DNA from: Caldithrix sp.
Lineage (GTDB): Bacteria; Zhuqueibacterota; Zhuqueibacteria; Oceanimicrobiales; Oceanimicrobiaceae
NCBI GenBank assembly: GCA_004357015.1
Contig: SMXE01000086.1
Span: 1 to 10,380, forward strand
Reading direction: 5' to 3'
Length of the DNA: 10,380 nt
Position numbers and translations under genes: made by a program. The notes below the pieces were generated by a model. The model was not told the origin of the DNA. It saw only the letters and a list, made by a program, of their open reading frames with translations, and ran no database searches. This document shows positions 61-10,380 of the stretch, piece by piece; positions within the stretch are counted from its first letter, which is position 1, and the number at the start of each line of letters is the position of its first letter.

Positions 61-353
61 TAGAACCTAAATTGATCGATTGGCTTTTGGCAATTGTAAC
101 TATTCAGCTATTGGCATTTAGCTGTTGGTCATTCTTCATAAATTGGTTGCACACAATGAGAGATTTCAGGACTCTGAATATTTGGACCGGTGGGATTGCG
201 ATCGTTAAACAAGTTTACCGATCGGCAGAATTCCTTCCTGTTGAATAAAAATATGGCTTGGGTCACTTAGACAAAGAACAAAAAGAGGATAAATAACCTT
301 ATCAGCAAGCTCAAGGCCAACAGCCAATGGCCAAACGCATATTTTAGGTAGAA
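61..353. repeat. Intergenic element 1 with inverted heptad ends
   Basis: This fills almost the whole 365-base gene-free stretch at the left of the window. The left end (66-91) starts CCTAAA and carries TTGGC motifs. The right end (323-348) finishes TTTAGG, and its reverse complement again starts CCTAAA followed by GTTTGGC, giving imperfect terminal inverted repeats. TAGAA occurs directly outside both ends (61-65 and 349-353), like a 5-bp target duplication. Inside the ends are 7-nt periodic motifs: GGC at 82 and 89, then AGC/GGC/AGC/GGT at 106, 113, 120 and 127 on the left, and GCT/GCC at 309, 316, 323 and 330 on the right. No ORF or transposase is visible inside. The ends match element 2 closely, while the middles differ. 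A non-autonomous mobile element (MITE-like) or a structured intergenic repeat are both possible. Confidence 0.65.
199..224. other. Near-perfect palindrome in element 1
   Basis: The 12-nt arm at 199-210 (CGATCGTTAAAC) is the inverse of 213-224 (GTTTACCGATCG) with one mismatch, separated by AA. No T-run follows, so it is not an obvious intrinsic terminator. It could be a binding site for a dimeric regulator of the downstream genes or a folded part of the element. No function can be assigned from sequence alone. Confidence 0.4.
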
Positions 354-365
354 ATACATTAGAGT

Positions 366-1598
366 ATGGACTTCGAGTCGACCAGAAGCATTGTTAATAA
401 ATTAGCCAGCGACATTCCGCCGCATTTGTTCGGCGAGGCACGGCATGTATTCATCGGAAAATATCTGGATGAACAGCCCGATGAAATCAAAATGGGCATC
501 AAAACCCATCTCGATGGCCTGTTGGACCGGATGAGAAAGCTGGAAGCTTCGGATATCGACTTCGGCGGGCCCGGATGTGCGAAGAGAATCTGGTTCCGTG
601 TCTTTGGCAACAAGAAGCCTGAAATGAACCTGAAAGATTATTCGCTGGACGAAACCGACGTCATCATCAACAACATCATCACCAGCACGGAACGGGAAAA
701 ATTGCTGACGCAGCGCAATCTCGATTTTTCCTACAGAGTCTTTGACGAGGAAAACAAAACCTGGGCACGCTTTCGGGCTACGATCTATTTCGAATTGAAT
801 CATCTGGCGCTCAACATGCGCCGTATCAACGAGCAGATCATCCCGTTCCGGGAGTTCGGTTTCCACGATGATGTCGCCAAAGCACTCAGCCTGAAATATC
901 AGAAGTCCGGCCTGATACTGGTGACCGGTATCACCGGCTCCGGCAAGAGCACGACGCTTGACTCCATCATAGATGCCAACAACAGGACTATGAGCTCGCA
1001 TATCATCATCATCGCAGACCCGGTGGAATATGTGCACGAATCGATAAAGGCCATCGTCAAGCACAGGGAGATCGGAAGGGACGTCCACTCCTTTAAGGAA
1101 GGCACGATTCAGGCTTTGCGGCAGGATCCGGACATTATCGTCATCGGCGAGATGCGCGATGCCGAGACCATCATGACTGTTCTGGAAGTTGTGGACAGCG
1201 GCCACAAGGTCTTCTCAACCTTGCACACCTCTTCCGCGCTCGAGAGCATCGACCGGATACTCGGCGAAATTTCACCGGATGAACAAGACCGAATCCGGGA
1301 ACGCCTGGCGGATGTGCTGACAGCCGTGATCTCGCAAAAGCTGATTCCCAGCCTGGATGGCCGGCTCGTCCTGGCAAAAGAAGTTTTGCTGACAAACTCG
1401 TCGATTAAGACTGCCATCCGCAACAACAATATTGGCGAAGTCTACCAGATCATTCAGCAGTCGAATGCCGGCGGTATGAACACGATGGAACAGGATCTCG
1501 CCCGTCTGAACTCGACGAATACCATTTCATATTTTGAGGCCTACATCAACGCAAATAACAAGAAACGATTTGAGGAACTGGTAAAGTACAGTTACTAG
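366..1598 (+). CDS. pilT: PilT-type secretion/retraction ATPase
   Basis: This is a 410-residue P-loop ATPase of the type II/IV secretion superfamily. PilT-like members act at the inner-membrane base of pili and, as hexamers, power pilus disassembly. Residues about 60-150 resemble the PAS-like N-terminal domain (ASDIDFGGPG in place of the usual ASDLHL stretch). The catalytic half shows Walker A GITGSGKST (188-196), an Asp-box DPVEYV (219-224), Walker B with IIVIGEMRD (257-265) and the His-box STLHTSSALESIDRI (284-298). The C-terminal AIRN (350-353) and GGMNTMEQDL (369-378) match the PilT/PilU signature region, but the usual LIRE after AIRN is replaced by NNIG. About 60 extra residues precede the conserved N-domain. 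No tetracysteine zinc motif of PilB/GspE is present. The start has only a weak AGAG (361-364) before it. It lies between two related intergenic elements, upstream of the alignment-complex genes. Family assignment is firm; retraction activity is inferred. Confidence 0.9.
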   Translation: MDFESTRSIVNKLASDIPPHLFGEARHVFIGKYLDEQPDEIKMGIKTHLDGLLDRMRKLEASDIDFGGPGCAKRIWFRVFGNKKPEMNLKDYSLDETDVIINNIITSTEREKLLTQRNLDFSYRVFDEENKTWARFRATIYFELNHLALNMRRINEQIIPFREFGFHDDVAKALSLKYQKSGLILVTGITGSGKSTTLDSIIDANNRTMSSHIIIIADPVEYVHESIKAIVKHREIGRDVHSFKEGTIQALRQDPDIIVIGEMRDAETIMTVLEVVDSGHKVFSTLHTSSALESIDRILGEISPDEQDRIRERLADVLTAVISQKLIPSLDGRLVLAKEVLLTNSSIKTAIRNNNIGEVYQIIQQSNAGGMNTMEQDLARLNSTNTISYFEAYINANNKKRFEELVKYSY

Positions 1599-1680
1599 AA
1601 TCTAAATTGAGCGATTGGCTTTTGGCAATTAGCTTTTAGATAATAAAATTCAATGAGTTAAATATGGATATTGTAAATCA

Positions 1681-1728
1681 CCTGCCTGTGCGCTGCGTGC
1701 CTGCTGTAGGCATGCATGCAGACAGACC
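1681..1728. repeat. G+C-rich imperfect palindrome inside element 2
   Basis: The left arm, rich in CCTGCCTGTGCG and TGCGTGCCTGC (1681-1704), is the approximate inverse of GTAGGCATGCATGCAGACAG (1706-1725). This can form a hairpin with a tiny loop near 1704-1706. Its base composition contrasts with the AT-rich surroundings, and it resembles the REP/BIME style of dispersed extragenic palindromes. It may be a separate repeat nested in element 2. A folded RNA could lower read-through between the ATPase and PilMN genes. Confidence 0.5.
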
Positions 1729-1744
1729 AAACAGGAGCAATGAT

Positions 1745-1759
1745 ATTTACGACGTAAAT
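1745..1759. other. Short palindrome ATTTAC-GAC-GTAAAT
   Basis: Perfect 6-bp arms (ATTTAC at 1745-1750 and GTAAAT at 1754-1759) flank a 3-nt spacer inside element 2, about 75 bp before the PilMN start. It could be a protein-binding site or part of the fold of the element. Short palindromes of this size arise by chance in AT-rich DNA, so little weight should be placed on it. Confidence 0.25.
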
Positions 1760-1833
1760 TCTCAAAAATTAAAAGCCAAAGGCCAAGGGCCAATAGCTAA
1801 TAGCCAAACGCGTATTTTAGGTTGAAGTAAGAG

Positions 1834-3504
1834 ATGAAACCCAAGCACGCGATCGGAATTTCGATCAATGGCAATAATGTCAAAGCTGCTTTCCTGAGTC
1901 GGGTCAATGGCGAAATCAAGGTCATGGGCCTGCAATCGACGACCCTGGCCGGCCCGATAGAATATTCACGCCAGTTCAAACGGGCGCAAGAAACCGTGGG
2001 AATTGGCGAAGAAGCGCTCGAGAACGCTTTCGATATTCAGGACCCGGTCAGCACGATGCACGCGGACGATGAAGCGTTGCAGCCCGAACCCAAAAGTGAC
2101 ACCAACGTCAGTCTTATCTACTCGATGATCGACCGGTTCCACGATACGGACGCTGTCGTCGCCATCAACGCGCCCATTCTGACAGTCAAGTACGACTTTC
2201 TGGATACGGACTCCCTTCCCGATGAAAAAAAGCACAAGAAGGGATTCGTCAAGAAGATGGAGTTGTGGCGGAATGACGATGACGATCTGATCCGTTCCAC
2301 CTTCCTGCGGCTCAATTCGGAAAAAACGTTGCGGATCGAATATGAACACCATCCGCCCGTACTTGATTTGATCGATGATGTCAGCCAGTTCCGGCGCGGC
2401 CAACTCAAACTGCAACTGATGGATACCAATGAGCTGGCCCTGGCGCATCTGGTCAAGAAGAGCTATAACCTTCGCAAGGAATATACCACCGCAGTCATCT
2501 ATATCGAACCTGACTTCTCGCGGGTCATTTTCATGCGGGGTATGCAGGTTTATTACATTACCCCGGTCATTCACAAAGGCAGCATGTCCAAGGATGTGCT
2601 CGATGTGGTTTACAGCAGGATCATCCTGGCGCAGGATCACTACCACATCCCGGAACTTGACAAAATTTTGCTGGCTTCCCGCAGCGCCAAGTTGCAAGCA
2701 CAGAAATATTTCAAGGAGAAGTTCCCGTCCTCTAGTGTTGGGTATGTCAACTCGAAGCTGATAAAATCAGAGTACAAGTTCGACGAGGAAGGACGCCTGT
2801 TTTCTCAGTACGCCATTCCGATCTCATTTGCCTGGAAACTGCTGCAAAAGAAGTCCAAGTTTTCGAAACTGACCAACCTGCTGCCGGACTATATTCTGGA
2901 ACGGCAGAAAATGCCGAAGCTGGCGTTTCATGGCTATATTCTGCTGTTTCTGCTGGGCATAACGGCTTTCACGTTTACCTGGTTGCTGGTCACCAAGAAC
3001 CTCCAGATCGTGAAACTGAACCGAAGCAACGAGATGGTCGAGCGCCAGATTGAAAGCAATCAGCCTCTGGCTGAGAAAGTGAAGCAGTACGAGGATGAAA
3101 TCGGAAAACTGAATCGGAACAATGCCCTGCTGGACAGTATGACTACGGGTTACGATGAAACCATCACTTTTCTCTTGCACCTGAACAAGGCCATGGTGAA
3201 GGCGGGCGGCATCTGGATCACGAAACTGAGCATGAAAGATAAACGGATCGACCTCGAAGGAATTGCGACTCAGCGCGACAGAATCCCGATGCTGGCAAAT
3301 GCGCTGGGCGGGGCAAATCTGAGAAAGATCACCAGAACGGAATTTGAAGACAGAAAGGCGTTTAAGTTTCGTCTCGACAAGGATGTTAAGATTGAGGAAG
3401 ATTCTAATAACCTGAATCTGCTGCTGACCCTAAAGAAGAGATTTAACGGCCAGAACGACAAGAGAAGTAGCAATGGGAAGGCCGGTACCACAAACGGCCG
3501 TTAG
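1834..3504 (+). CDS. pilM: PilM-PilN fusion, pilus alignment protein
   Basis: This 556-residue protein has a cytoplasmic PilM/GspL-like actin-fold half followed by a PilN-like bitopic half. The actin-like part (1-340) begins GISINGNNVKAAFLS (8-22) and has a second-phosphate-like strand pair near VIYIEPDFSRVIFMRG (221-236). Residues 348-352 read NLLPD, echoing the INLLP peptide that in separate systems sits at the PilN N-terminus and docks into PilM. Next come a transmembrane segment (about 366-386), a charged coiled-coil-like stretch (390-435) and a ferredoxin-like periplasmic domain (about 440-515), with ITKLSMKDKRIDLEGIA at 462-478 as its typical strand pair. A polar tail ends the protein. 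The phosphate-binding loops lack the usual Asp/Gly pattern, so ATP binding is doubtful. GspL of type II secretion has a similar overall plan and is the main alternative. It is followed 42 nt later by the PilO-like gene. Confidence 0.82.
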   Translation: MKPKHAIGISINGNNVKAAFLSRVNGEIKVMGLQSTTLAGPIEYSRQFKRAQETVGIGEEALENAFDIQDPVSTMHADDEALQPEPKSDTNVSLIYSMIDRFHDTDAVVAINAPILTVKYDFLDTDSLPDEKKHKKGFVKKMELWRNDDDDLIRSTFLRLNSEKTLRIEYEHHPPVLDLIDDVSQFRRGQLKLQLMDTNELALAHLVKKSYNLRKEYTTAVIYIEPDFSRVIFMRGMQVYYITPVIHKGSMSKDVLDVVYSRIILAQDHYHIPELDKILLASRSAKLQAQKYFKEKFPSSSVGYVNSKLIKSEYKFDEEGRLFSQYAIPISFAWKLLQKKSKFSKLTNLLPDYILERQKMPKLAFHGYILLFLLGITAFTFTWLLVTKNLQIVKLNRSNEMVERQIESNQPLAEKVKQYEDEIGKLNRNNALLDSMTTGYDETITFLLHLNKAMVKAGGIWITKLSMKDKRIDLEGIATQRDRIPMLANALGGANLRKITRTEFEDRKAFKFRLDKDVKIEEDSNNLNLLLTLKKRFNGQNDKRSSNGKAGTTNGR

Positions 3505-3546
3505 GCGGAGAAAAGAACGGTTATTAAACGGATTTAAGCAAGAACG

Positions 3547-4434
3547 ATGTTCGCAAAAAGAAACAGTATTACATTGGCAGCCATCTGGCTTATCTTGTTG
3601 CTTGTCGGCATTTTCCTGTATGTCAAGGATACGCGACGCCTGGTTGAGGCCATGCACCAGAAAGTCACCCTCTCTACAAAGTTGGAGTCTTCTCAACACG
3701 AGATTGCCAGGCTTAAAGGCATTGAAGATGAACACTCTAAGTTGAGCCAGCTCTGGCACAGCATGCCCAAGAAAATCGTTTCCGCCGATGAGCCATCTTT
3801 CAGCCTCTCATACTTCAACTGGATCATGACACGATACCGTCTGGTGGTGGATTTTGACTTTGAACTGAACCAGATAAAACAATTAGACAGCTATACCAAG
3901 TATGTTTATACTCTGAACGGGGAGAGCGCCTACGGCGAAATCCTGAGACTCATATGGCACATTACGCACGAGCCCATTCTATACAGAATCAATTCCATCA
4001 GGCTGAACAGTACCGGCGACCCGCAACTGTTAAGCTTCAGCATTGAGCTCGAGGGTTACGCGATGAACGATGAGCTTGAAATTGCAGAGTTTTCGGAGCT
4101 ATCGCCTGCCAGCTACGCCTCTCTGCCGGTGCAGCACGACATTTTCGCCCCGATTATCAAACCGAAGCCCAAAATAGTTGTTGCTGAAGCGCCAAAATTA
4201 CCACCGAAGCTGCCGGGGCAGATAGATGTTGAACTGGCCTCTCTGCAAGCGGTAACGAGCAACTCCATCTTTATTGCAGACCCTGGCAATGGCGTGAAAG
4301 AGCTCAAGGTTGGCGACGCCGTTTACCTGGGTAGGCTGGTCCGCATAGACACCCAAAGAAACGAAGCTGAATTCCGAATTACGAAGTTTGGCAAAACGCA
4401 ACGAATTACATTGGGCATCAATTACAGGAAGTAG
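3547..4434 (+). CDS. pilO: PilO-PilP fusion, pilus alignment protein
   Basis: This 295-residue bitopic protein has a short basic cytoplasmic start, a transmembrane helix (about 8-26), a coiled-coil-like stretch (30-70) and a ferredoxin-like periplasmic domain (about 80-172), as in PilO. A Pro/Lys-rich linker follows (about 200-224, with PKLPPKLPG). The C-terminal domain (about 227-292) has the PilP/GspC homology-region pattern: a strand around ASLQAVTSNSIFIADPG (231-247), then KELKVGDAVYLGRLVRID (251-268) and a final pair of strands. Normally PilP is a separate lipoprotein that contacts the secretin N-domains. Here it appears to be tethered to PilO and anchored by the PilO helix. The TAG stop lies 5 nt before the secretin start, and the secretin ribosome-binding site lies inside the last codons, suggesting translational coupling. 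The PilO half is identified by position and architecture more than by sequence. Confidence 0.75.
   Translation: MFAKRNSITLAAIWLILLLVGIFLYVKDTRRLVEAMHQKVTLSTKLESSQHEIARLKGIEDEHSKLSQLWHSMPKKIVSADEPSFSLSYFNWIMTRYRLVVDFDFELNQIKQLDSYTKYVYTLNGESAYGEILRLIWHITHEPILYRINSIRLNSTGDPQLLSFSIELEGYAMNDELEIAEFSELSPASYASLPVQHDIFAPIIKPKPKIVVAEAPKLPPKLPGQIDVELASLQAVTSNSIFIADPGNGVKELKVGDAVYLGRLVRIDTQRNEAEFRITKFGKTQRITLGINYRK
4426..4431 (+). promoter_or_regulatory. Ribosome-binding site of the secretin gene
   Basis: AGGAAG lies 8 nt before the ATG at 4440 and overlaps the last codons of the PilO-PilP gene. It is the clearest Shine-Dalgarno match in the window and supports the chosen secretin start and coupled translation with the gene before it. 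Confidence 0.7.
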
Positions 4435-4439
4435 AAAAT

Positions 4440-5666
4440 ATGGCAAAGCGGATTTGCGTACTCGGATGCACGGTTCTGGTCATGGTTACTGCGTTTTGCA
4501 ATGGATTCTTACACGCGCAGGTCGTTCCACGGGGAGATACAAATCTGGGCCGGCGGCTCGGGCAATATGGTCCCGAGGAACTGGTTTCCTTCGATAGCAG
4601 TTTGCCCATGAGGACTGCGCTGGAAATACTGAGCCAATACACATCACGCTATGAAGGCAGAATTATCATCGATCCGGAAGGCCACACGCGGCCAATTAGT
4701 GTGATGGTAAACCGGATGTACTGGAAGCGGGCGCTTGAATACATCCTGCGTTCAAATTTACTCGAGTACATCGAACACGACAATTATTATGAAATCGTGC
4801 CTCTGGGGACCGCGACGGAAGAGGGAGAATTTATTGACATCCACTCACGGGAAATTGAAATCAACGCTGTTTTCTTTGAAGCCGACTACCAGACCCTGGT
4901 GGAGGCAGGTATCGACTGGAGTGCCATGAACGGCGGCAGGGTCAAAGTATTTGGTAATTTCGGCGGGGAAGTGACGAAAGATTTGTTCAGTGCAGGGTAC
5001 ATAGACAAATTTGGCAATTGGGATGTTACGACGTTGCTCCGCACCTTTGAGAGCCTGGACAAAGGGGAAGTGATAGCCAATCCGCAAATCAAAGTACTTG
5101 ATGGCGAGGTAGGCAAAATAAAAATTGGCACCAACTTCTTTCTGACCACCAGAGACTTTGCCGGCAATACGCGCTTTACCGAATACGAATCCGGTATTAT
5201 CCTGACTGTGACGCCCACCATCATCGGGGAAGCCGACTCCATGTTCCTCCATCTCGATATCAAGGCGGAAAGAAGCACGGTCAATCCCGATGCAATAAAT
5301 GTCACGAAAACCATCACGGAAAGCAACACTCAGGTGCTTCTCGTCGACGGCGAAGAGGTTGCCATCGCCGGGCTTTTTTCAAACACAGTCACCACGTCGA
5401 GAAGAGGCATTCCAATCTTAAAAGACCTGCCGCCATGGTTTTTCGGGCTGCGCTATCTTTTCGGATATTCGTCGAAGCAAGTCACGAAAAAGGAGCTGGT
5501 GATCTTGATACGGGCCAAGATCCTTCCAACCATTGCGGCCAGACTTGCCAGCAAGGCGAGACGACGAAATGTTCTACAAGAAAAGTTACTTGAATACAGA
5601 CGACGTCTGCGTGATCTGAGAAGCACCAACGGCCGCGCGCCCCGTCGCACCCGGAACGGCAAGTAA
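4440..5666 (+). CDS. pilQ: Short PilQ/GspD-like secretin
   Basis: This 408-residue outer-membrane secretin would form the ring-shaped gate for a pilus or secreted substrate. Residues 1-26 are a Sec signal peptide (KR at the start, hydrophobic core, cleavage expected after HAQ). Residues about 48-125 form an STN/N0-like domain. The core begins near REIEINAVFFEADYQTLVE (137-155). It continues with VIANPQIKVLDGEVGKIKIG (211-230), the strand GIILTVTPTII (252-262), TQVLLVDGEEVAIAGLF (297-313) and the signature RGIPILKDLPPWFFGLRYLF (322-341). It ends with ELVILIRAKILPT (352-364). A very basic tail of about 40 residues (370-408) follows. PilQ is usually well over 600 residues; here the AMIN domains and repeated KH-like N1 domains are missing. 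That fits a reduced alignment complex, with the fused PilP domain contacting a minimal periplasmic stalk. Secretin identity is firm; the pilus versus type II choice rests on the neighbours. Confidence 0.88.
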   Translation: MAKRICVLGCTVLVMVTAFCNGFLHAQVVPRGDTNLGRRLGQYGPEELVSFDSSLPMRTALEILSQYTSRYEGRIIIDPEGHTRPISVMVNRMYWKRALEYILRSNLLEYIEHDNYYEIVPLGTATEEGEFIDIHSREIEINAVFFEADYQTLVEAGIDWSAMNGGRVKVFGNFGGEVTKDLFSAGYIDKFGNWDVTTLLRTFESLDKGEVIANPQIKVLDGEVGKIKIGTNFFLTTRDFAGNTRFTEYESGIILTVTPTIIGEADSMFLHLDIKAERSTVNPDAINVTKTITESNTQVLLVDGEEVAIAGLFSNTVTTSRRGIPILKDLPPWFFGLRYLFGYSSKQVTKKELVILIRAKILPTIAARLASKARRRNVLQEKLLEYRRRLRDLRSTNGRAPRRTRNGK

Positions 5667-5674
5667 AACTTAAC

Positions 5675-5680
5675 GAAGAG
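5675..5680 (+). promoter_or_regulatory. Ribosome-binding site of the kinase gene
   Basis: GAAGAG lies 7 nt before the ATG at 5688, inside the 21-nt gap after the secretin stop. It supports this start; there is no room for a separate promoter in the gap. Confidence 0.5.
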
Positions 5681-5687
5681 TAGTAAA

Positions 5688-8246
5688 ATGGAGCCGTTCA
5701 AAATTCTCAATGACCGATACTACCTGCTAACCGTTATCAGACGAGGCGGTTTTGGCACGGTTTACAAAGGCCGGGATTCCGTGCTGGGCAAGGATGTCGC
5801 GGTGAAAGAGATCAACCCGGACCTGGTTGACGACGCCTGGTTTGTCGACCGGTTCCGGAACGAGGCGCGCCACGTCGCAAAAATGAATCACCAGAACATC
5901 GTGCACATCTTCGACCTGGTGGAGTCTGACGAGGGCCGCTACTACATCGTCATGGAATATATTGACGGCCTCGACCTCGGAACACTGCTCAGAGAGTGCC
6001 AAACAGCCTCAACTCGTCTGCCACACCACCTTGCCGTACACATCGTCGCCGAAACCTGCAAGGCGCTCGACTATGCCCATAACTGTCGTAATTTCGATAA
6101 CAACGAACCGCTGAATCTCGTGCACCAGGATATTTCTCCGGGTAACATCATGGTTTCAAAAGCCGGAACCGTGAAACTGATCGACTTTGGTATTGCGGGT
6201 GCACCCAAACCAACGACTGCCGATGATGACACGTTGGCGCTGCGAGGCAAAGTCCAGTACATGTCGCCGGAGCAGGTCAGCGTCGGGCGGCAACTGGATA
6301 AACGCTCGGATATTTTTTCACTGGGCCTGGTGCTGTACGAGCTTCTGGAGGGCAAACGCTACTTCCATGACCAGGATGCCGACACAATAATTGAAACATT
6401 GAACAACGGTAAGCTCAAGCTTAAAGAACTTTCACACACGCCTAAACCACTGCAGAAGGTGCTCGGCCGGGCCATGGAGAAGTATCCGGACAATAGGTAT
6501 CAGAACGCCAACCAGTTCTACATCGATCTGGTCACCTACCTTGCACTCAACTCGGATACATCAGATTTTGACGCTGAACTCAACCAGTTTATTGCCGGAC
6601 TTTCTGGTGTTGATGCACTTGACACCCAGCCCGGGGCAACCCTCGACATCACTGAAGCCGATGCGTTATTTGATTCCGTTCAGGCGGACATCGAGCAGGC
6701 GCAGACGGATGAGGAACCTGAAGAGCCGACCGGTGACGTCTTGGGGGAAGATGACCTTGGCGAGAGTCTGCCAAGCCTCCCGGGCCTGGCGCCGTCATCT
6801 TCCAAGCCCGTTCAAACACCGCCAGTGCCGGCCAAGCCGCCTGAGTACTTCGAAGTTGGCGATGAAATCAAGACCGTGATCGACGTGATTCGCCTGTCGA
6901 CGCGGGGACAAAAAAAAGCGATCACGCGTAGCCTGATTGCCGTAGCTGCAGCGGCTTTTCTTTTCTTCGTGATAGATATTTTCTCGCAGTGGACCAGCAT
7001 TGGTACAGGTGTTTATGACTACCTGTTCCCACCAACCATTCGAGTGGCTTCGGTTCCCGCGGGTGCAAAAGTTTATCTGAATGACGAGGCCATTCCCGGC
7101 GTCACGCCACTCTCTATCGACGGCATCGAACCTGGCGTTTACCAGTTGAAGCTGACGCTTGACCCGTACAAGCCCATCGTCAAGTCGCTTCACGTGCCGG
7201 GCAAAGGGCAAGCCGAAATTAAAGGAGAGGACGTTCGCAGCGGGGACCAGCCGTACGCATTCAGTTTCAAGACAACTCTGGAGTTAGAATCCGTGCCTCC
7301 TGGCGCCGACGTTTATATCAACGGTACCAAATTCGGTCTGCAGACACCTTGTTCCGTGACGTGGGAAGTCGGCGAGCCTTGCGAAATCAGGATGGCCAGA
7401 AAGGGATTCAGTGATCTCGCGGGTTTCGCGTTTGCCGGTGAATTGATGCGTGAAGAAATAGATGATCGCCGGCTCTGGAGATTTGAGGTAGTGCAGGATC
7501 CCAGCCCGCGATACAAAGTGCGTGGCCTGTTCGGTAAGTTTGTGACCGTCAATTCTACGCCATCGCGGGCGGCCATTTACCTGGATGGTGCGAATGATCC
7601 TGTTGGCACGACCGGCGACGGTGCCCAGCTTTTCCTGATGGCGGCCAAGCACACACTTGTATTGAAAAAGAAGGGATATAATGCCCGCACGATCAATATT
7701 TCGGTCAACGACGGGACGCCTGAGAAAGTATCGGCACTGCTCACCAGACCCGTGCGATTTTCTGCATACGATGCGACCAACGGCAAGAACAAAGACCTTG
7801 GTGCTTCTCTTAAGCGGCTGGTCCGGAATGGCAAAACAGTTAGCTCCGGAAGGCGGACGCCCTTCACGCTCAATCTCCAGCCACGGCCGTACACGGCCAC
7901 CTTTTCCAGGCCGGGATTCAAAGACGCCCGGGTGGATATCTCTTCGAGGGATAGAGCTGTAACCGTCAGGCTCGAGCCTGTCGCATCAAGATTTTCGGTG
8001 GTTGTTTTAGACAAGGCTTCCGGCAGCCCCTTGAGCAACGTTGAGGTAAGGATCAGAGCGCTCGATGAGCCAGCCGCTCCGGAATCTGTCGATGTCACAG
8101 ACATAGACGGTACCGTCAGCGGTCAGGTTGAGCCGGGTTTGTATCTCTTCCGTACCAGCAAGATCCGGTACGAATATCAGGAACAGTCTGTCGCCATTCG
8201 CTCCGGAGGAATGACATTGATCGAGTTTAATCTGGCAAGGAACTGA
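5688..8246 (+). CDS. Membrane Ser/Thr kinase with PEGA repeats
   Basis: This is an 852-residue Hanks-type kinase. The N-terminal catalytic domain (about 10-283) shows the glycine loop RGGFGTVYKG (19-28), the ATP lysine in VAVKEI (K40), the alpha-C glutamate (E59), the catalytic loop HQDISPGN (146-153), DFG (166-168), MSPEQ (192-196), the DIFSLG helix start (208-213) and a late Arg (R270). The catalytic loop has HQD rather than HRD. An acidic, Pro-rich linker (about 310-390) leads to one transmembrane helix (about 412-432), placing the rest outside the cytoplasm. Three PEGA-type units follow: 451-512 (SVPAGAKVYLNDE), 530-600 (SVPPGADVYING) and 617-686 (STPSRAAIYLDG). After them come a beta-rich stretch (689-764) and a carboxypeptidase-regulatory-like domain (767-849, with VTDIDGT). 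PEGA domains are thought to bind cell-wall or surface components. All catalytic residues are present, so it should be active. The position between secretin and FHA protein suggests it phosphorylates envelope-machine parts or the FHA partner. Confidence 0.92.
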   Translation: MEPFKILNDRYYLLTVIRRGGFGTVYKGRDSVLGKDVAVKEINPDLVDDAWFVDRFRNEARHVAKMNHQNIVHIFDLVESDEGRYYIVMEYIDGLDLGTLLRECQTASTRLPHHLAVHIVAETCKALDYAHNCRNFDNNEPLNLVHQDISPGNIMVSKAGTVKLIDFGIAGAPKPTTADDDTLALRGKVQYMSPEQVSVGRQLDKRSDIFSLGLVLYELLEGKRYFHDQDADTIIETLNNGKLKLKELSHTPKPLQKVLGRAMEKYPDNRYQNANQFYIDLVTYLALNSDTSDFDAELNQFIAGLSGVDALDTQPGATLDITEADALFDSVQADIEQAQTDEEPEEPTGDVLGEDDLGESLPSLPGLAPSSSKPVQTPPVPAKPPEYFEVGDEIKTVIDVIRLSTRGQKKAITRSLIAVAAAAFLFFVIDIFSQWTSIGTGVYDYLFPPTIRVASVPAGAKVYLNDEAIPGVTPLSIDGIEPGVYQLKLTLDPYKPIVKSLHVPGKGQAEIKGEDVRSGDQPYAFSFKTTLELESVPPGADVYINGTKFGLQTPCSVTWEVGEPCEIRMARKGFSDLAGFAFAGELMREEIDDRRLWRFEVVQDPSPRYKVRGLFGKFVTVNSTPSRAAIYLDGANDPVGTTGDGAQLFLMAAKHTLVLKKKGYNARTINISVNDGTPEKVSALLTRPVRFSAYDATNGKNKDLGASLKRLVRNGKTVSSGRRTPFTLNLQPRPYTATFSRPGFKDARVDISSRDRAVTVRLEPVASRFSVVVLDKASGSPLSNVEVRIRALDEPAAPESVDVTDIDGTVSGQVEPGLYLFRTSKIRYEYQEQSVAIRSGGMTLIEFNLARN

Positions 8247-8262
8247 AATCGGGAAAACAGCT

Positions 8263-10380
8263 ATGCCCAGGCTTATTCTAAAAAAGAACGACGTGCTGGT
8301 CAGAGAATTTGAATTTGACCGGTCCAAGACCGTGTTTATGGTTGGCGCAGATGTCGAAAACGACCTTGTCGTCGATGACGAAAACATCTCTAGCAAGCAT
8401 CTCAAGGTTGAGCGCATCAACAACAGTTTCTATTTGCAGATCATCAACACGGCTTTTCCTACGCAATTCAATGGCCGCCCGCTCCTGCGCAGAGTGCAAA
8501 TCGTTGATGGGGATGAGATCACCCTGGGCGAATACAGCCTGCTGTTTCGGCACGACAAGACGCCGTTGCCTGCCGCGAACTACGACGAAGATCTTGAAAT
8601 TATCGGTGCCGACGACCCCGTCAATGTTTTTGAGTTCGATCCGACAGAACCGGTGCAGACGCCGCCCAATCTGAACGAAAATATTGTTTTTGAACAGGCG
8701 ATATCAAGCCAATCTGACTCCTCAGAGATCATAGATCTGCCTAAGCTCTCAGACGCCTTTGTTACAGGAACCGGGAAAGATGACAACGGCGTCGATATCT
8801 CGGAAGAGAAACATTCAGACTACTATCTCCTTGCAATTCACGGTCCTTACATTGGTAAACGCTACCCCTTGAAACGCGGCGACACCAAGATCGGGCGTGA
8901 CAACACTTTGAATGACATCATCATCAGAAACAACGAGGATGGCGTGCTCGATCCCAGCGTTTCGAGGCGGCATGCCACGGTCAGTTACCGCAACGGTCAG
9001 TTCTTTGTCACAGACAAAAGAAGCAAGACCAGAACCTTCGTCAATCAGACGAAGCTTGAACCAACCGATGAAGTGGTGGTTCATGAAGGCGACGAGATCG
9101 AAATCGTCAGTGATCAGAAGAGTACGATTTTCCGTCTCACCCGAACAGATGTCAGTGATTTCAGGTCACCGCGCAAGGCGGGTCTCTGGTGGGTGCGTTA
9201 CTCGGGAAGGTTGTTTGTGTTGCTTTCTCTTGTGAGCATCGTGGTTGCCGCGGGTGCCATTGGCCTGTATGTTAAGAATCAGAAAGCAATTTCCCAAAAA
9301 CCCGAGCAACTCAAATTGGTTGAGGAGGTGTGGTTCCTGGCGCCGGCTTCCCTGGGAGACAGGCTCACTACGGCGACTCTTGCGGTTTCGGACCTGGACG
9401 GCAACGGTCAGGTTGACATCGTATTTACCGACACCGAGAATCACCTCACCGCGTTGGATGGTGTGACGAAGACAAAGTTATGGCAGAATACCGAGCTTGA
9501 AGTCCGGTACGATATTCCCATCGTGCTGGCCGACCTGAACAAGAATGGTTTGCAAGATGTGCTGGTGGTCGGTTTGGATGGCCGTCTGCACGCGTACGAC
9601 GGCGCTAACGGCGCTGAAATCTGGCTCAGCCCGATCCTGGGCGAAGCTGTCAGCGGGCCGCCGGTGGTGGACGATTTTAACGACGATGGCCTCAACGACG
9701 TGGCTATTTGCTCACAGGCAGGCGACATTCACATCGGCTATGGCAGTGTTTTCGAAGTCAACTGGAAAAGAATCGCGACGCAATTCAGCTTCAAGGCGTC
9801 GCCTTCGTGCGCGGACTTGGATGATGACGGCCAAAATGAAATATTCATCGGCACCGAAGACGGCAAGCTTCTGACCGTGACCGAAGACGGCAATGTCGCG
9901 ATTCTCAACTTGAGTGAAAAAATAAACGAAGCCGCCGGGGAAGTCGGAAAACGACATGTTCTCAGGAAGCCGGCAGCGTTCGGTGACCTGGACGGTGACG
10001 GTGTACCGGACATGATTGCAGGTTCGGTGGCCGGAGATTTTTTGGCGATGTCGGGATTGACGCAGCGTCCGATCTGGCATGAGAAACTACATCATGCATC
10101 GCTGTTCACGGAACAGAATTTCGCGCCTGTTGTCGGCAAGCTGAACGATGACAATTTCGATGACGTGGTACTTGTGACAAACCAATTGATTAGAGTTGTG
10201 GCCGGCAGCAATGACGCAGGTAATCCCAAGCCTGTCCTTTGGGACTATTACGTGGACGCCGAAGACTATTTCGTTGCCGCGCCGGCGCTGGCCGATTTCA
10301 ACAAGGACGGCTCAAACGACGTCATCATCGCCGCCCGCAGTGGCACAGTGTCCGTATTTGATGGGAAAAGCGGCAAGATC
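8263..10380 (+). CDS. Tandem-FHA, TM, FG-GAP/VCBS protein (partial)
   Basis: The ATG lies 16 nt after the kinase stop, and the frame is open for 706 codons to the window edge, so the C-terminus is missing. FHA 1 (about 3-97) has VGADVENDLVV (27-37), SSKH (43-46) and FNGR (69-72): the phosphothreonine-binding Arg after Gly is replaced by Ala. An acidic linker (105-183) follows. FHA 2 (about 187-293) is canonical, with IGRDN (210-214), SRRH (234-237) and VNQT (260-263). A basic stretch (301-316) and a transmembrane helix (about 317-337) give an N-in topology. The outer part (from 370) has seven calcium-loop-like FG-GAP/VCBS repeats, consistent with a beta-propeller. FHA domains read phosphothreonine, so the protein is a natural partner of the adjacent kinase. 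The FHA, TM and repeat calls are strong; the ligand is unknown. Only a weak GGGAAA precedes the start. Confidence 0.88.
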   Translation, partial: MPRLILKKNDVLVREFEFDRSKTVFMVGADVENDLVVDDENISSKHLKVERINNSFYLQIINTAFPTQFNGRPLLRRVQIVDGDEITLGEYSLLFRHDKTPLPAANYDEDLEIIGADDPVNVFEFDPTEPVQTPPNLNENIVFEQAISSQSDSSEIIDLPKLSDAFVTGTGKDDNGVDISEEKHSDYYLLAIHGPYIGKRYPLKRGDTKIGRDNTLNDIIIRNNEDGVLDPSVSRRHATVSYRNGQFFVTDKRSKTRTFVNQTKLEPTDEVVVHEGDEIEIVSDQKSTIFRLTRTDVSDFRSPRKAGLWWVRYSGRLFVLLSLVSIVVAAGAIGLYVKNQKAISQKPEQLKLVEEVWFLAPASLGDRLTTATLAVSDLDGNGQVDIVFTDTENHLTALDGVTKTKLWQNTELEVRYDIPIVLADLNKNGLQDVLVVGLDGRLHAYDGANGAEIWLSPILGEAVSGPPVVDDFNDDGLNDVAICSQAGDIHIGYGSVFEVNWKRIATQFSFKASPSCADLDDDGQNEIFIGTEDGKLLTVTEDGNVAILNLSEKINEAAGEVGKRHVLRKPAAFGDLDGDGVPDMIAGSVAGDFLAMSGLTQRPIWHEKLHHASLFTEQNFAPVVGKLNDDNFDDVVLVTNQLIRVVAGSNDAGNPKPVLWDYYVDAEDYFVAAPALADFNKDGSNDVIIAARSGTVSVFDGKSGKI
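9391..10320 (+). repeat. Seven FG-GAP/VCBS calcium-loop repeats
   Basis: Within the FHA protein, Asp-rich loops recur at residues 377 (DLDGNGQVD), 424 (DLNKNGLQD), 471 (DFNDDGLND), 518 (DLDDDGQNE), 575 (DLDGDGVPD), 626 (KLNDDNFDD) and 678 (DFNKDGSND). The first four are spaced exactly 47 residues apart; later spacings are 57, 51 and 52. The sixth lacks the first Asp and the Gly and may bind calcium poorly. Several repeats also carry a PQQ-propeller-like tail (HAYDGANGAEIW at 443-454). Seven blades would fill a typical propeller, but more repeats may lie beyond the window. Confidence 0.8.

What the first reader, a model, noticed from the sequence alone, without database searches (positions are those of the whole stretch)
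1834..10380. Compact pilus/secretion assembly joined to a kinase-FHA signalling module in one operon
The sequence shows PilMN, PilOP, secretin, Ser/Thr kinase and FHA protein on one strand with gaps of 42, 5, 21 and 16 nt, and a PilT-type ATPase just upstream. Kinase/FHA pairs controlling an envelope machine are known for type VI secretion (PpkA/Fha). The same arrangement in a minimal type IV pilus or type II-like operon is unusual to my knowledge. I infer that threonine phosphorylation gates assembly or use of this apparatus. No pilin, PilB, PilC or PilD is present in the window, so it may be either a full pilus with dispersed genes or a reduced derivative.
Basis: partly seen in the sequence, partly recalled or inferred. 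Interest (0 to 1): 0.72.

Follow-up and report, generated by a model that had tools for sequence, protein, structure and literature searches.

The report
Kinase–FHA pair inside pilus operon
In one family of uncultured KSB1 bacteria the genes for a retractable surface pilus carry, in the same operon, a membrane protein kinase and a partner protein that should recognise phosphorylated threonine, which suggests a pilus with its own phosphorylation switch, although no experiment has yet shown that the switch acts on the pilus.

Summary
PilT-like ATPase, PilMN, PilOP, secretin, Ser/Thr kinase and FHA protein lie on one strand, with gaps of 42, 5, 21 and 16 nt between the last five. The window is a whole contig of a 70%-complete KSB1-related MAG.

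In relatives these genes are half of a fuller type IV pilus cluster (pilin, PilC, PilB, minor pilins), so the machine is not reduced. The kinase–FHA pair adjoins the pilus genes in 6 of 7 pilus loci of the family.

The pair is not pilus-born. Across the class a cassette (PEGA kinase; two-TM FHA/propeller protein; PP2C; TPR protein; TPR-pseudokinase) stands apart from pilus genes (0 of 24 loci outside the family). Other families' pilus loci lack it (0 of 33). The window pair is a family-only lineage ('b'); another ('a'), with phosphatase, lies upstream of the pilin.

FHA2 keeps its phosphothreonine-binding residues; FHA1 mostly lacks them. In 32 of 33 kinases an isolated membrane-proximal [KNR]-T-[VI]-I-D motif is the best candidate FHA2 ligand. 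No convincing site was seen in pilus proteins.

Best reading: a pilus operon with a captured phosphothreonine module. That it controls the pilus is inferred from linkage only.

The parts
366..1598 (+). PilT-like retraction ATPase
   Evidence: TIGR01420 307.2 bits (cut-off 319.1), T2SSE E 1.8e-37; best PDB matches PilT
1599..1833 (+). PilT-PilMN spacer (235 nt) bearing repeats D2 (1596-1630) and D1 (1788-1829), whose other copies lie upstream of PilT at 61-95 and 315-356
   Evidence: the repeat finder; promoter-like hexamers at 1615-1649 (consensus match only)
1834..3504 (+). PilMN fusion: PilM-like actin-fold domain, TM 363-381, PilN domain
   Evidence: PDB profile match to PilN, Foldseek PilM, TM
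3547..4434 (+). PilO-like protein with a C-terminal PilP/GspC-HR-like domain (PilOP)
   Evidence: position, hydrophobic segment 2-20, alignment of 17 relatives; no family match
4440..5666 (+). short secretin (408 aa)
   Evidence: PF00263 E 5.1e-28; GspD and PilQ chains in PDB
5688..8246 (+). transmembrane Ser/Thr kinase with three PEGA stretches and a CarboxypepD_reg domain ('Kin-b')
   Evidence: Pkinase E 9.5e-43, PEGA E 1.1e-27; K40, D148, N153, DFG present; TM 415-433
6861..6896 (+). juxtamembrane motif DEIKTVIDVIRL with Thr396 (codon 6873-6875): candidate phosphosite and FHA2 ligand
   Evidence: [KNR]-T-[VI]-I-D before the TM in 32 of 33 kinases, in an otherwise unconserved linker
8263..10380 (+). 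FHA x2, TM, FG-GAP beta-propeller protein ('FHA-b'), cut by the contig end; 99%-identical P0072 (817 aa) has a second, C-terminal TM
8884..9105 (+). FHA2 (residues 208-281), with R212, S234, R235, H237 kept
   Evidence: same residues in 39 of 39 aligned proteins, read by eye
8269..8550 (+). FHA1 (residues 3-96), lacking the canonical arginine (VGAD in place of IGR)
   Evidence: fold from the model

Best explanation
The window holds the retraction-ATPase, alignment-complex and secretin half of a type IV pilus system, followed in the same operon by a family-specific copy ('b') of a KSB1 signalling cassette. Shown by sequence and model: a kinase with its catalytic residues, one TM and PEGA domains beyond it, and a partner with a phosphothreonine-competent FHA2 before its first TM and a BamB-like propeller after it. 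Inferred: the kinase senses envelope or pilus-machine state through its PEGA domains, autophosphorylates the juxtamembrane Thr in [KNR]-T-[VI]-I-D, and FHA2 docks there; the kinase–FHA complex then acts on the neighbouring PilMN/PilOP/secretin/PilT machine, and the PP2C of the upstream 'a' cassette resets it. The pseudokinase and TPR proteins, where present, are likely scaffolds.
For: Family linkage: the b pair lies beside pilus genes in G000, G001, G003, G005, G006 and G007 (five genera) and is absent in G002: 6 of 7 loci. Spacing upstream of Kin-b is 21, -1, -1, 12, 24 and 18 nt (ORF starts called mechanically); no sigma-70-like site in the window's secretin-kinase or kinase-FHA gap. In G007 the pilus genes are split: PilC-PilB-pseudopilins on C132, PilT-PilMN-PilOP-secretin-Kin-b-FHA-b on C83, so the pair stays with the envelope complex. 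Lineages a and b are each one family-only clade, SH-aLRT 100. G004, in which secretin, T2SSF and PilMN were not found, has a and c copies but no b. Catalytic and FHA2 residues are kept, and the juxtamembrane motif is in 32 of 33 kinases.
Against: G002 keeps the pilus genes without b. The cassette exists class-wide without pilus genes (0 of 24 loci outside the family, 0 of 4 family 'c' copies). The juxtamembrane motif belongs to the whole cassette family, so it does not itself tie the module to pili. No invariant Thr with acidic +3 in PilMN, PilOP or PilC, and the four in PilT and PilB lie in conserved ATPase-family sequence (5-7 proteins each). In the window's own assembly no PilC was found and the nearest PilB-like protein is 31% identical; the MAG is 70% complete. 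In G003 the kinase-FHA gap is about 161 nt. The b kinases have HQD in place of HRD and Lys at the activation-segment GT position, so activity is not certain.
Confidence: 0.6

Rival explanations
1. Hitchhiking: the cassette was duplicated into the pilus locus and shares its promoter, but its target lies elsewhere (for example envelope maintenance), and adjacency has no functional meaning. (The odds given here are not exclusive of each other.)
For: The cassette is class-wide and independent of pili; copy a lies divergently beside SpoIIE/HATPase/STAS/Mla-type genes in G003; no convincing phospho-acceptor motif in pilus proteins; G002 lacks b.
Against: Retention in 6 of 7 loci across five genera although the b proteins have diverged to about 40-69% identity, company with the envelope half where the cluster is split in G007, and two separate cassette lineages at the same locus.
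Confidence: 0.25
2. T6SS-like gating: the kinase phosphorylates a pilus inner-membrane protein (PilMN or PilOP), and FHA-b binds that phosphothreonine to license assembly, as Fha binds phosphorylated TssL.
For: Precedent in Agrobacterium (PMC3953482, abstract read); PilMN has low-confidence, probably disordered stretches at 46-86 and 134-152 in the model.
Against: No invariant Thr with an acidic residue at +3 in 7 PilMN or 7 PilOP proteins of the family; those PilMN stretches are poorly conserved. FHA ligands need not have an acidic +3, so this is weak evidence.
Confidence: 0.2
3. Structural role: FHA-b is an inner-membrane component of the pilus machine in the manner of YscD/CdsD, and phosphorylation is secondary or absent.
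For: PF16697 (Yop-YscD cytoplasmic domain) matches, E 6.2e-19; FHA1 lacks its binding arginine; two TMs and a large domain between them.
Against: FHA2 keeps the canonical residues; the part after the TM is a propeller with BamB and BBSome-type matches; G002 keeps a pilus locus without FHA-b.
Confidence: 0.15

Closest known systems
Type IVa pilus machine (PilB, PilC, PilT, PilM-N-O-P-Q, pilins)
   Same: PilT-like ATPase, PilM and PilN folds, PilO-like protein, secretin; relatives add PilC, PilB (MshEN in G003), pilin and minor pilin-like genes
   Different: PilM fused to PilN, and PilO apparently to a PilP-like domain; short secretin; the four family pilins seen start MGQQQLLL, without the usual Glu5 (usual feature recalled; sequences)
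T6SS threonine phosphorylation pathway (PpkA, Fha; phosphatase PppA recalled)
   Same: Ser/Thr kinase, FHA partner and, in the 'a' cassette, a PP2C phosphatase beside an envelope machine
   Different: no T6SS genes among the annotated neighbours; the FHA protein has TMs and a propeller and scores 57 bits against a 120.25-bit TagH cut-off; an extra pseudokinase and TPR protein
Chlamydia PknD / CdsD (type III secretion)
   Same: kinase plus a YscD-like protein with two FHA domains; PknD phosphorylates the CdsD FHA-2 domain in vitro (PMC2765968, passages read)
   Different: there serine and tyrosine of the FHA domain itself are modified and in vivo phosphorylation was not detected (same passages); here a propeller in place of the YscD-type periplasmic part (recalled), PEGA on the kinase, and a type IV pilus locus
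Archaellum regulatory network (ArnA FHA, ArnC/ArnD kinases, PP2A)
   Same: kinases, an FHA protein and a phosphatase controlling a type-IV-pilus-related machine (PMC5300886, passages read)
   Different: acts on expression; [quoted passage not shown] not a membrane kinase-FHA pair in the operon
Myxococcus Kil Tad-like apparatus
   Same: several FHA proteins in a type-IV-filament locus (PMC8460266, passages read)
   Different: FHA also fused to the ATPase KilF; 'Thr kinase' and 'threonine' do not occur in its main text

Membership tests
Type IVa pilus system | PilT-family ATPase | tested here: met
   TIGR01420 307.2 bits, just below the 319.1 cut-off; best PDB chains PilT
Type IVa pilus system | PilM/N/O/P alignment complex and secretin | tested here: met
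   PilM fold, PilN, secretin; PilO and PilP by position and alignment only
Type IVa pilus system | PilB, PilC and pilins in the genome | tested here: inconclusive
   Pilin, PilC and PilB in the clusters of G002, G003, G005, G006; PilC, PilB and minor pilin-like genes, but no pilin seen, in G007. In G000 no PilC and only a 31% PilB-like protein; the MAG is 70% complete and its pilins were not searched except by one minor-pilin query (weak hit)
T6SS threonine phosphorylation pathway | Ser/Thr kinase with catalytic residues | tested here: met
T6SS threonine phosphorylation pathway | TagH/Fha family FHA protein | tested here: not met
   TIGR03354 57 bits against cut-off 120.25
T6SS threonine phosphorylation pathway | adjacent T6SS core genes | tested here: not met
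   none among the Pfam-annotated genes of the window and of G003/G006 cluster genes; not searched genome-wide
YscD/CdsD inner-membrane ring protein | cytoplasmic FHA-like domain | tested here: met
   PF16697 E 6.2e-19
YscD/CdsD inner-membrane ring protein | periplasmic ring-building domains | tested here: not met
   the part after the TM is a propeller
PASTA kinases (PknB/Stk1) | NF033483 equivalog with PASTA repeats | tested here: not met
   255.7 bits against cut-off 450; PEGA found, no PASTA
Phosphothreonine signalling module | kinase activity, and FHA2 binding to a phosphopeptide | not testable with these tools
   residues present; biochemistry needed

The most novel reading that the evidence does not exclude
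A type IV pilus with a built-in phosphothreonine circuit: in this KSB1 family a complete kinase/FHA/PP2C/TPR/pseudokinase cassette stands upstream of the pilin gene and a second, diverged kinase/FHA(/TPR/pseudokinase) copy stands downstream of the secretin, so the pilus cluster is bracketed by two captured copies of one signalling cassette, with FHA2 reading a kinase juxtamembrane TxID phosphothreonine to couple envelope state to pilus extension or retraction.
Probability: 0.45. Interest if true: 0.75.

Novelty: new variant of a known kind. Interest (0 to 1): 0.6.

Why it matters
Kinase–FHA control of envelope machines is documented for T6SS, in vitro for a chlamydial T3SS protein and, at the level of expression, for the archaellum. 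My searches found no paper that joins a bacterial type IV pilus, a Ser/Thr kinase and an FHA partner in one operon (open-licence PMC texts only; I read listings, not every paper). If the module acts on the pilus, it would extend phosphothreonine switching to the machine behind twitching motility and DNA uptake. The conserved TxID motif gives one short peptide on which the idea can be tested in vitro without culturing KSB1 bacteria. The cassette itself, with its pseudokinase, may be an undescribed signalling unit across a KSB1 class.

Tried and rejected
Reduced or pseudopilus machine: rejected, since relatives carry the fuller set. Pair conserved with the secretin across the class: rejected. 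Phosphoacceptor in pilus proteins: no convincing site; the scan did list invariant Thr with acidic +3 in PilT (2), PilB (2), PP2C (1) and the pseudokinases (3), from 3-7 sequences each, so that scan alone does not single out the kinase motif. PilOP against PDB by profile: one chance hit. Promoter/terminator scan: 16 promoter-like sites against a shuffled mean of 9.3 (sd 3.3) and 9 terminator-like against 11.5; none promoter-like in the two key gaps. The GTDB scan gave five loci, all equal in contig length to contigs already seen under G handles (G001, G002, G003, G005, G006); it served for names. Literature searches for KSB1 pili, and for type IV pili with FHA, kinase and secretin, returned no paper. 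The own-genome secretin/PilT-like contig (L068) and PilB-like contig (L135) were mapped only. One weak PilMN match outside the family (G037:C426, E 1.8e-4) was not fetched. FHA/propeller matches of several genomes (for example G010, G024, G058, G071) were not fetched for context. Viral-contig, plasmid and phage collections were not searched.
Full report
Observation. The window is one whole contig (G000:C240, 10,380 bp) of a 2.2 Mb, 268-contig, 70%-complete MAG. Relatives are labelled candidate division KSB1 or Caldithrix sp.. Six ORFs lie on the + strand with the stated gaps. Domain searches confirm a PilT-like ATPase, a weak PilN match, secretin, a Ser/Thr kinase with PEGA domains, and an FHA protein with FG-GAP repeats. 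A 16-sequence AlphaFold2 model of PilMN (mean pLDDT 71.7) has P. aeruginosa PilM as top Foldseek hits, and the C-terminal half matches M. xanthus PilN by profile, so the PilM-PilN fusion is well supported. PilOP rests on position and alignment. The FHA model (mean pLDDT 81.1, pTM 0.52) shows two FHA folds, one long helix and a propeller with KICSTOR, BBSome and BamB propellers among its matches. A 99%-identical complete protein (703 of 706 residues) runs to 817 aa with a second TM.

What the machine is. PilMN homologues were found in 38 of 99 genomes searched, the window's own included. The window's family (f1) has eight held genomes, G000-G007. Its best assemblies show, on one strand, pilin, PilC, PilB, PilT, PilMN, PilOP, secretin and three short pilin-like genes (G002, G003, G005; G006 over two contigs; Pfam names for G003). 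In G007 the cluster is divided: PilC, PilB and the pilin-like genes on C132, followed by genes unlike any of the cluster, and PilT to FHA on C83. The window, with 365 nt before PilT that hold no cluster gene and bear repeats, looks like the G007 arrangement. I could not find PilC in the window's own assembly, and its PilB-like protein is only 31% identical to the family PilB, so the full set in this organism is not shown.

What the kinase and FHA genes are. They belong to a cassette found across the class: PEGA kinase, FHA/propeller, PP2C, TPR protein(s), TPR-kinase (some families lack one or another part). FHA/propeller proteins over 400 bits occur in families f1, f4, f6, f8, f9 and f11. The PEGA kinases keep the catalytic Lys, HxD and DFG. 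The TPR-kinase looks like a pseudokinase: of 29 such proteins taken from cassette loci, 28 cover the catalytic position and none of the 28 has Asp there; L120 could not be scored, and the f8 proteins L119 and L121 align poorly. The PP2C of G006 shows DGMGG, GDSR, TDG and DN motifs (sequence; motif names recalled). 38 of 38 FHA proteins not cut by a contig end have at least two predicted hydrophobic segments, one near the C-terminus.

Lineages. Trees of 39 FHA proteins and 33 kinases give three f1 clades: a (upstream of the pilin), b (downstream of the secretin; the window) and c (elsewhere), each one side of a branch with SH-aLRT 99-100; c groups with f6 and f8. These are quick trees without bootstrap, and deeper branches are weak.

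Linkage. Lineage b adjoins pilus genes in 6 of 7 pilus loci of f1 (not G002). Lineage a lies directly upstream of the pilin in 4 of 4 assemblies that are contiguous there (G002, G003, G005, G006); contigs end inside or at the cassette in G001, G004 and G007, and no a copy was seen in G000. Outside f1, 0 of 33 PilMN loci carry kinase-PEGA, FHA, propeller or PP2C homologues, and 0 of 24 cassette loci carry PilT, PilMN, PilOP, secretin or PilC homologues; 0 of 4 c copies do (hits of 80 bits or more counted; stretches of 3 to 20 kb, some cut short by contig ends; L057 was printed twice and counted once; one locus, L039, has an unrelated kinase). In five loci of other families examined, the gene after the secretin encodes a Big_1/Invasin-D3 protein in four and a WD40 protein in one. 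By longest-contig length, 10 of 21 PilMN entries on contigs of at least 15 kb share a contig with a b-type FHA protein; this is a proxy, read by eye, and only the best 120 of 224 FHA hits were listed. G004, where secretin, T2SSF and PilMN were not found, has no b but has a and c: consistent with b being tied to the pilus, but it is one genome, 89% complete and 8% contaminated.

Mechanism. FHA2 residues R212, S234, R235 and H237 are the same in 39 of 39 proteins; FHA1 lacks the canonical Arg in 37 of 39, and b copies lose more of it. The kinase linker between catalytic domain and membrane is unconserved except for an acidic stretch and [KNR]-T-[VI]-I-D just before the TM, in 32 of 33 kinases (exception: copy a of G007). 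A threonine with Asp at +3 suits several FHA domains (recalled). In f1 pilus proteins the four invariant Thr with an acidic +3 lie in conserved ATPase-family sequence of PilT and PilB; PilMN, PilOP and PilC have none; the PP2C and pseudokinases have four more. The kinase–FHA docking step is thus suggested by sequence; action on the pilus rests on linkage alone. In genus g2 the b cassette has shrunk: behind FHA-b G007 has only pieces of the pseudokinase, and G001 a TPR fragment at the contig end.

Comparison. Kinase–FHA control is established for T6SS (PMC3953482, abstract read) and shown in vitro for chlamydial CdsD (PMC2765968, passages read); the archaellum uses kinases, a phosphatase and an FHA protein for expression control (PMC5300886, passages read); the Myxococcus Kil system has FHA proteins in a Tad-like locus (PMC8460266, passages read). 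Membership in the T6SS pathway fails on the FHA family score and on the gene context seen. I file this as a new variant of a known kind.

Verdict.

Noticed in passing
L073:4532-6892, L074:2036-4471, L035:170-2647 and other cassette loci: The TPR-kinases of the cassette look like pseudokinases: the catalytic Asp is replaced by N, R, S, E or P in 28 of 28 scorable proteins.
   Followed up: partly
L045, L055, L042, L054 (gene after the secretin): In other KSB1 families the pilus secretin is followed by a large Big_1/Invasin-D3 repeat protein, possibly a pilus-linked adhesin; L040 has a WD40 protein there.
   Followed up: no
L035:2988-3389 and homologues in L036, L037, L038: The four family pilins begin MGQQQLLL, with a two-residue leader and no Glu5; a profile of them finds 27 ORFs in 19 of the other-family pilus loci searched (their N-termini were not inspected).
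   Followed up: no
L072:1386-8118 (minus strand): Copy a in G003 stands divergently beside SpoIIE/GAF, HATPase, STAS, MlaE, ABC ATPase, MlaD, ABC_trans_aux and NtrC-type genes; genes of similar size and order lie beside cassettes in f9 and f11 (not annotated).
   Followed up: partly
L033:10603-11560 and L034:1-336: Remnants behind FHA-b: pseudokinase pieces in G007, a TPR fragment at the contig end in G001.
   Followed up: partly
window 61-95 / 1596-1630 and 315-356 / 1788-1829: Two intergenic direct repeats (94% and 86% identical) flank the PilT gene.
   Followed up: no
P0022, P0023, P0026, P0044 and other PilMN homologues: Many family PilMN homologues carry a C-terminal SPOR domain (PF05036); none is listed for the window's protein.
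   Followed up: no
G000:C177 (L068) and G000:C120 (L135): A second secretin with a PilT-like ATPase, and a PilB-like ATPase, lie on other contigs of the same MAG.
   Followed up: no
kinase activation segment, window kinase residues 187-188 and 146-148: The usual GT before the Y-x-[SA]-PE motif is GK (GN in three c copies), and HRD is mostly HQD, with HKD or HLD in a few (usual forms recalled).
   Followed up: no
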